Positions 61,211-62,724 of a stretch of DNA of 64,000 nucleotides are shown piece by piece. This DNA comes from Mya arenaria (lineage: Eukaryota > Mollusca > Bivalvia > Myida > Myidae): the NCBI RefSeq assembly GCF_026914265.1, contig NC_069124.1, positions 52,626,388 through 52,690,387 of the forward strand. Direction: 5' to 3'. The notes beneath the pieces were generated by a model. That model was not told the DNA's origin, did no database searches, and saw only the letters and a list, made by a program, of their open reading frames with translations. Every line of letters starts with the position of its first letter. Within the stretch, counting starts at the first letter, position 1. The position numbers were made by a program, and so were the translations under genes.

Positions 61211-62724
61211 TCACAAATACGTGTAACATGCCGATTCTGGATAACCCTCTTTCCACCCAGTTAAACATGCACCAAACATGTCACACTGATTAATGAGTTT
61301 GTCACATTTTTGTCCACAAAAAGCTTGTGGAAATGTTGGCAATACATTGCCAGTCGACAAAGGATCATCACCAAGAAGCTGTTCAAAAGTCTGTTCTTCT
61401 TGCAATAGTGGTAAAAATCCATTTTGAGTATGACTTGACTGGTCCATATTTGCGTACTGAGAATCACTGAGAAGCGTGTTGTCAAACTGATCATATGTAG
61501 ACGGTGGTGCATAACATTCAGTTATTTGATTTTGGTAACAAATTGGTTGACCATAAGTGAAACTTTCACTAGTCTGTCCTTCGTACTGTCCTAAAAGAAC
61601 CGGAGAAGTACATGAGCCATCAGACCCCGCTGATATACCAGATATAGATAGGGGGCTTCCGTTTGCGGTGTTATCGTCGTAAGTGGTCAAGTATCCACTA
61701 TTTGAATCACCGTTGTCAACATTCCACGGTCCAACAAGAAGGTCATGGAAATCATTTTGCTCTAGGATGGATTCCAGGGTATCGATTGGCAAGGAGACTT
61801 GCCTATCACTATCAGTGCTGTTAAAAGTGCATGATATATCATCCTCAGGGACCATATTGTCATGCTGGATAATTATCTTATCTCGATGTCCACGTTTCTT
61901 AGGTTCTTTAAAGAACGAAGATGGTAGTTTACGTTGCCTCAATGGAGTTTTTGAACTTGATGAGCTATGCTTTGACTTTTCTGTACAGCACTTCTCGTGC
62001 AGAGTTCTTGGATCAAACAAAGCTTGTAAAGATTTAATTTGGATGCCTGTCTGCGACGTTTCTCTCCTTGATATTTTGGGATGTGTTGGGTTTCCCTGCT
62101 CTCCAACCTGGCAAACAGAGATATTGCATTATGTTTTCTTAATGGAAATCCAATTATAGTTATTAAATACCCTGTTTCACCTAAGTCACGAAATATTTAA
62201 AATAACAATGGTATATCAATTCACTGGGCACACACTTAAATGTATACTTTTGCGTATTCATTGGTTGTATCATATTGTTTTACCAAGCATTATTAGTAAT
62301 TGTAACAATCATCATGAACGTAATATTCTACCATTTGTTTGTAGAGGAATACATTCCTTATCGATTGTGTAATAAACGATTCTTATTTTGTTTTGATTGG
62401 TGCCTACAAGACTTTTGTTAGTCTAAAACATCAGATGGTTACATACGAACTGCAGATACCCGTCGAAACGGTAACGGACCACTATCTTACCTTGATCTCA
62501 TCAACTGTTCCTCGCTCCGATGTTCCACATCTTTTCAACTGCTTCTGTAGATATTTCCTGTGATTCACCTTCCGTTTTGATTTTACTGGCTTGTCCAGGG
62601 CTAGTTTGATGTTGCTGGATGCCATGTCAACAAAACTCAGCAAGTTACGCGTTTCCATGTCGTCTGCTTGGCTATTATCTTCAAAACTGTCGAACCTTTC
62701 CATAAATCCTATATCAATATTCAT
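61211..62724 (-). CDS. FAM181 family protein (FAM181B-like), TEAD-interacting motif
   Basis: Two minus-strand exons, 62724-62491 and 62107-61211, join at phase 0 to 376 residues. Exon 1 has the FAM181 signature at residues 25-66: [20 protein letters not shown] followed by [22 protein letters not shown], nearly identical to vertebrate FAM181B. Exon 2 has SLQALFDPR (104-112; FAM181B has SLAALFDSL) and then [14 protein letters not shown] (134-147). The last block matches the omega-loop by which YAP binds TEAD and by which human FAM181A/B were shown to bind TEAD. The rest is low-complexity, acidic and serine-rich, and probably disordered. Vertebrate FAM181 genes are expressed in developing nervous system; the role in molluscs is unknown. 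The start is the first ATG in the exon and is followed by the conserved block. Confidence 0.92.

What the first reader, a model, noticed from the sequence alone, without database searches (positions are those of the whole stretch)
61901..61942. A mollusc FAM181 protein keeps a YAP-type TEAD-binding omega-loop
Residues 134-147 ([14 protein letters not shown]) align with YAP LRKLPDSFFKPP: the counterparts of YAP R89, L91, S94, F95 and F96 are all present. The rest of exon 2 is poorly conserved, so selection appears to hold this short motif specifically. Human FAM181A and FAM181B are reported TEAD binders. Finding the motif in a mollusc suggests TEAD binding is the ancestral job of the family and a second, non-YAP input to Hippo output in invertebrates.
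Basis: partly seen in the sequence, partly recalled or inferred. Interest (0 to 1): 0.78.

Follow-up and report, generated by a model that had tools for sequence, protein, structure and literature searches.

The report
FAM181-type protein with TEAD-binding motifs

Summary
On the minus strand at 61942-61901, in a two-exon, 376-residue gene model, residues 134-147 read [14 protein letters not shown]. Pfam's Omega-loop family PF15238 (TEADIR3) matches residues 133-147 above its cut-off; YAP and FAM181A chains of the PDB align to it. The interpretation needs three corrections. (1) The loop is not the only preserved piece: a second TEAD-contact motif, LxxLF (residues 105-109), lies upstream, and exon 1 looks more conserved than the loop (37 of 42 against 11 of 15 identical to human FAM181B, but that sequence was recalled: a lead only). 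(2) Sanchez-Pulido et al. 2022 (PMC9710580) already give LxxLF plus PxxxRxLPxSFFxxP as shared by PERCC1, FAM181B and YAP/TAZ and cite an annelid FAM181; the window protein fits both strings. (3) 'Second, non-YAP input' is overstated: Drosophila Vestigial already binds its TEAD with an Omega-loop (PMC7566471), and nothing here ties FAM181 to Hippo regulation. Most likely a cofactor that grips TEAD with helix and loop and competes with YAP; its effect on transcription is unknown. Species, copy number and conservation across invertebrates could not be tested.

The parts
62491..62724 (-). Coding exon 1, residues 1-78, from the ATG at 62724; GT donor at 62490-62489
   Evidence: no Pfam family at E up to 1 for exon 1 alone
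62527..62652 (-). Residues 25-66, likely counterpart of the conserved N-terminal region of FAM181; includes a basic [10 protein letters not shown] run
62108..62490 (-). Intron, 383 bases, phase 0, GTAAG...TTTGCCAG
   Evidence: predicted from sequence, no transcript seen
61211..62107 (-). Coding exon 2, residues 79-376 and stop
62015..62029 (-).
   Evidence: an LxxLF falls in residues 79-133 in 1585 of 100000 shuffles; residues 105-108 and 111-121 helical in a single-sequence model of mean pLDDT 67
61901..61945 (-). Omega-loop, interface 3, residues 133-147, [15 protein letters not shown]
   Evidence: PF15238 TEADIR3; alignment to YAP and FAM181A chains; exact fit to PxxxRxLPxSFFxxP
61040..61045 (-). 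Candidate poly(A) signal AATAAA, the first downstream of the stop on this strand
   Evidence: the hexamer is common here (186 matches in the window), so weak

Best explanation
The gene encodes a FAM181 protein of the FAM181B type from an animal, probably an invertebrate: a largely disordered nuclear cofactor that binds TEAD in two places, like YAP without its first strand. The LQALF segment folds into a helix in the TEAD helix groove (interface 2), and [15 protein letters not shown] forms the Omega-loop in the deep pocket (interface 3): R137 salt-bridges the TEAD aspartate, S142 hydrogen-bonds, L134, L139 and F143 form the buried core, and R135 with F144 caps it. Between LQALF and R137 lie 27 residues; YAP has about 19 (recalled numbering). 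As the site is shared, the protein should compete with YAP. Its acidic tail (33 D/E against 6 K/R in 226 residues) may recruit co-regulators. Shown: open gene model, both motifs, match to the Omega-loop family. Inferred: binding, competition, nuclear location, effect on transcription.
For: Pfam TEADIR3 above its cut-off at 133-147; the same family takes the human YAP and FAM181A peptides. PDB chains of YAP and FAM181A, plus Yorkie and TAZ, are the only matches at E up to 10; that FAM181A and YAP are solved in complex with TEAD is stated in PMC10146773 (passages), for the other chains it is recalled. Exact fit to both published strings, LxxLF and PxxxRxLPxSFFxxP, with each contact role of the YAP loop filled (PMC7566471 passage). 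No WW domain or other Pfam family in the protein, against YAP itself. Exon 1 is 37 of 42 identical to recalled human FAM181B (lead). FAM181A/B co-immunoprecipitate with TEAD4 (PMC12672301 passage), and FAM181A is a top TEAD4 BioID partner (PMC11574045 passage). A helix-loop pair with a 27-residue linker is workable: VGLL2 with both binds at 34 nM against 590 nM without the loop (PMC7566471 passage). An oyster TEAD is described (PMC10164948 passages).
Against: No binding was measured or modelled. The window scores 28.6 bits, below the human YAP (36.9) and FAM181A (40.5) peptides. LxxLF is short: 1.6% of shuffles have one in that stretch. A review says FAM181A and FAM181B both lack the helix element (PMC10146773), against PMC9710580, which gives them interfaces 2 and 3. 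The isolated YAP helix is weak, and I recall low-micromolar affinities for FAM181A/B fragments, so tight binding is not assured. In VGLL2 the long linker lowers affinity. Single-sequence models are of low to modest confidence (mean pLDDT 71 and 67). No effect of FAM181A/B on TEAD activity could be determined in HEK293FT cells. FAM181 identity leans on a recalled sequence, since PF15238 also takes YAP; of three recalled strings searched in papers, only the FAM181A one was found.
Confidence: 0.8

Rival explanations
1. The gene is a PERCC1 or YAP/TAZ-family member rather than FAM181; the Omega-loop and LxxLF are shared by these families.
For: PF15238 takes YAP as well as FAM181A; PMC9710580 says PERCC1 and YAP/TAZ share both motifs and reports PERCC1 from molluscs, and that the N-termini of FAM181 and PERCC1 are distantly related.
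Against: No WW domain in the protein. Exon 1 aligns to recalled FAM181B with 37 of 42 identical and 0 of 2000 shuffles as good (lead only). The PERCC1 N-terminus was not available for comparison.
Confidence: 0.06
2. The TEAD motifs work, but TEAD binding is secondary: the main conserved function lies in the exon 1 region (unknown partner, basic stretch, predicted helix). This overlaps with the best explanation and is not exclusive of it.
For: Exon 1 appears more conserved than the loop (37 of 42 against 11 of 15; lead); C19orf85 is reported to keep the N-terminus without TEAD motifs (PMC9710580); no effect on TEAD activity could be determined.
Against: Both TEAD motifs fit the published strings exactly, which is hard to explain without selection for TEAD binding.
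Confidence: 0.3
3. The resemblance is a chance or convergent short motif without TEAD binding.
For: The motif is short, and no binding was measured.
Against: E=1.5e-6 against the Pfam library; 0 RxLPxSFF in 200 simulated windows and RxLPxSF in 24 of 100000 shuffles of the protein; a second TEAD motif lies upstream in the expected order.
Confidence: 0.03

Closest known systems
FAM181B (human, recalled sequence; family described in PMC9710580, which also cites an annelid FAM181, Capitella teleta R7UUL4, whose sequence I did not see)
   Same: Conserved N-terminus, then LxxLF, then PxxxRxLPxSFFxxP, in that order
   Different: 28 residues from the start of LxxLF to the start of the loop against 56 in the recalled human protein; tail after the loop not detectably similar (1652 of 2000 shuffles score as well)
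FAM181A (human; PDB 6L9F)
   Same: Omega-loop, 9 of 15 identical
   Different: W where the window and YAP have F; described as binding only at interface 3 (PMC10146773 passage)
YAP/TAZ/Yorkie TEAD-binding domain
   Same: LxxLF helix motif and Omega-loop; 11 of 15 identical to YAP over the loop
   Different: No WW domain found; I did not identify an interface-1 strand
Vestigial/VGLL2
   Same: A non-YAP TEAD cofactor with a helix and an Omega-loop (PMC7566471 passages)
   Different: Their helix motif is VxxHF, absent here

Membership tests
PF15238 TEADIR3 (Omega-loop, TEAD interacting region 3) | Whole-protein score at or above the curated cut-off (26 bits) | tested here: met
   28.6 bits, residues 133-147, profile 2-16 of 16
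YAP/TAZ/FAM181/PERCC1 interface 3 | PxxxRxLPxSFFxxP (PMC9710580) | tested here: met
   exact at residues 133-147
YAP/TAZ/FAM181B/PERCC1 interface 2 | LxxLF upstream of the loop (PMC9710580) | tested here: met
   LQALF at 105-109
FAM181 | Conserved N-terminal region (59-106 of human FAM181B) | tested here: inconclusive
YAP/TAZ | WW domain | tested here: not met
   only TEADIR3 listed at E up to 10
Vg/VGLL | VxxHF motif of the TONDU domain | tested here: not met
   none in the protein
PERCC1 | Its own N- and C-terminal conserved regions | not tested
   no PERCC1 sequence was at hand
TEAD cofactor | Direct binding to TEAD | not testable with these tools
   structure prediction accepts only window proteins, and no genome is held for this window
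Hippo-regulated effector | LATS site HxRxxS/T (motif recalled) | tested here: not met
   none; one HxKxxT (HEKCCT from residue 115), a kind of match seen in 2660 of 20000 shuffles

The most novel reading that the evidence does not exclude
The FAM181 protein in this window is a full two-site TEAD cofactor that binds more tightly than its loop alone, competes with Yorkie/YAP, and is not under LATS control; this two-site form was the ancestral bilaterian state, from which vertebrate FAM181A later lost its helix.
Probability: 0.4. Interest if true: 0.5.

Novelty: new member of a known kind. Interest (0 to 1): 0.3.

Why it matters
If it binds, FAM181 joins Yorkie, Vestigial and perhaps PERCC1 as a cofactor competing for one TEAD surface outside vertebrates. 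An invertebrate with a single FAM181 gene, if this is one, would be a clean place to learn whether FAM181 activates or represses TEAD, which work on the human proteins has left open (PMC12672301 passage). The family-wide relationship is already published, so the gene is a useful further example rather than a discovery.

Tried and rejected
The window's own genome is not held, so its TEAD, YAP and any second FAM181 could not be sought and copy number is unknown. A viral-contig scan with the exon 1 peptide gave 16 pattern matches, none confirmed. The prokaryote genome collection was not scanned, since no relative is expected there; no metagenome scan was allowed.

A possible third conserved motif in the tail ([17 protein letters not shown] against recalled FAM181B) was tested and rejected: 405 of 2000 shuffles score as well over the first 80 residues after position 150, and 1652 of 2000 over the whole tail. 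A LATS-like HxKxxT site was set aside as chance level. Structure predictions without relatives were of low to modest confidence; no fold search was run on them. tRNA and Rfam (gathering threshold) scans of the window found nothing. The 'FAM181 domain' of the Hydra paper is, as I read it, the older Pfam name applied to the YAP N-terminus, not a FAM181 protein (PMC8526868 passages). Searching papers for three recalled strings found one, QLPASFW of FAM181A, in one paper; the FAM181B loop string and the N-terminal string were found in none.

An earlier count said '38/42-like'; the counted value is 37 of 42.

Full report
What is in the sequence. The finding lies on the minus strand. Pfam-A lists one family at E up to 10: PF15238, TEADIR3, 'Omega loop, TEAD interating region 3' (spelling as printed), residues 133-147, 28.6 bits against a cut-off of 26, E=1.5e-6. 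The same family scores a human YAP peptide at 36.9 and a FAM181A peptide at 40.5 bits, so by itself it does not tell FAM181 from YAP.

Chance. RxLPxSFF occurs once in the six frames of the window and 0 times in 200 first-order Markov simulations of it; the looser RxLPxSF averages 0.06 per simulated window and occurs in 24 of 100,000 shuffles of the protein. Against PDB sequences, a 24-residue query matched 12 distinct sequences at E up to 10: 9 YAP, FAM181A (6L9F), Yorkie and TAZ; best E 0.0015, weakest 0.77. A 55-residue query matched 10, being YAP and FAM181A, best E 0.021.

Residue by residue. In the YAP and Vg complexes the loop works through a hydrophobic trio (M86, L91, F95 in YAP), a salt bridge of R89 with a TEAD aspartate, hydrogen bonds of S94, and, in YAP, a contact between R87 and F96 (PMC7566471 passages). 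The window has L134, L139 and F143; R137; S142; and R135 with F144. Each role is filled, and 11 of 15 residues are identical to YAP. Leucine at the M86 position also occurs in the YAP chain 8A8Q.

Residues 105-109 read LQALF, an exact LxxLF, the interface-2 helix motif of YAP/TAZ, 27 residues before R137. An LxxLF falls in that stretch in 1585 of 100,000 shuffles, so its weight comes from its order and from the published family pattern. A single-sequence AlphaFold model makes 105-108 and 111-121 helical, mean pLDDT 67 overall and 74-82 in those blocks. The second site matters: the isolated YAP loop binds with a Kd of 58 micromolar, and in VGLL2, whose linker is 27 residues, adding the loop to the helix part takes Kd from 590 to 34 nM, though that linker is reported to cost affinity (PMC7566471 passages). 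The isolated YAP helix is itself weak (PMC10146773 passages), so these figures give a direction, not a prediction of affinity.

Is the motif 'specifically' conserved? Probably not. That gives three conserved islands in a diverged protein, in line with PMC9710580, which describes an N-terminal and a TEAD-interacting conserved region for FAM181. The recalled FAM181B strings could not be confirmed in papers.

What is already known. PMC9710580 (main text read; [quoted passage not shown] Its alignment legend lists several mollusc species across the three families; which rows are FAM181 I could not see. The window protein fits both strings. FAM181A/B co-immunoprecipitate with TEAD4, but an effect on TEAD activity could not be determined (PMC12672301 passage); FAM181A is among the most enriched TEAD4 BioID partners (PMC11574045 passage). 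The primary paper (Bokhovchuk et al. 2020) is not held; I recall its abstract as saying that FAM181B alone has LxxLF and that affinities are low micromolar. A review states that both lack the helix (PMC10146773 passage), in conflict with PMC9710580. Searches 'FAM181 + invertebrate' (3 papers) and 'FAM181/mollusc/oyster/annelid/TEAD/Capitella' (15 of 1,168 listed) listed no study of a mollusc FAM181 binding TEAD; the library lacks most subscription journals. An annelid FAM181B is listed as a co-expression hub in ciliogenesis (PMC10380512 passages).

Hippo claim. An oyster TEAD is described and knocked down, and the same paper reports the TEAD-binding domain of oyster YAP/TAZ as not conserved (PMC10164948 passages), so a partner exists in bivalves. 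But Vestigial is already a non-YAP cofactor of this kind in an invertebrate, and the window protein has no HxRxxS/T site. FAM181 would be a TEAD cofactor with no shown place in Hippo signalling.

Limits. Species not tested, so 'mollusc' and even 'invertebrate' are readings; one sequence; gene model without transcript; no binding data; FAM181 identity partly on recall.

Noticed in passing
59089-59681: A near-perfect long inverted repeat: arms 59089-59201 and 59569-59681 (113 nt, 99%), and 59207-59326 and 59451-59570 (120 nt, 98%, 124 bases between); looks like a recent foldback or MITE-like element downstream of the FAM181 gene.
   Followed up: partly
47994-48977 (-) and 57886-58848 (+): Two related ORFs, 178 of 325 aligned positions identical, with only below-cut-off matches to BcrAD_BadFG (both) and HSP70 (the first), and no PDB match at E up to 0.01 for the second. 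They look like HSPA12-type proteins, a group I recall as expanded in bivalves.
   Followed up: partly
28678-29724, 35543-37198, 43596-45032 (all -): ORFs with strong Pfam matches to GH3, fucose pyrophosphorylase and a family 2 glycosyltransferase: ordinary genes, consistent with an animal source.
   Followed up: partly
61901-61945 (PF15238 match): PF15238 is now a 16-position model of the loop alone; a 2021 paper uses 'FAM181' for the YAP N-terminal domain, so older reports of a FAM181 domain may mean this loop. No Pfam family matched exon 1 at E up to 1.
   Followed up: no
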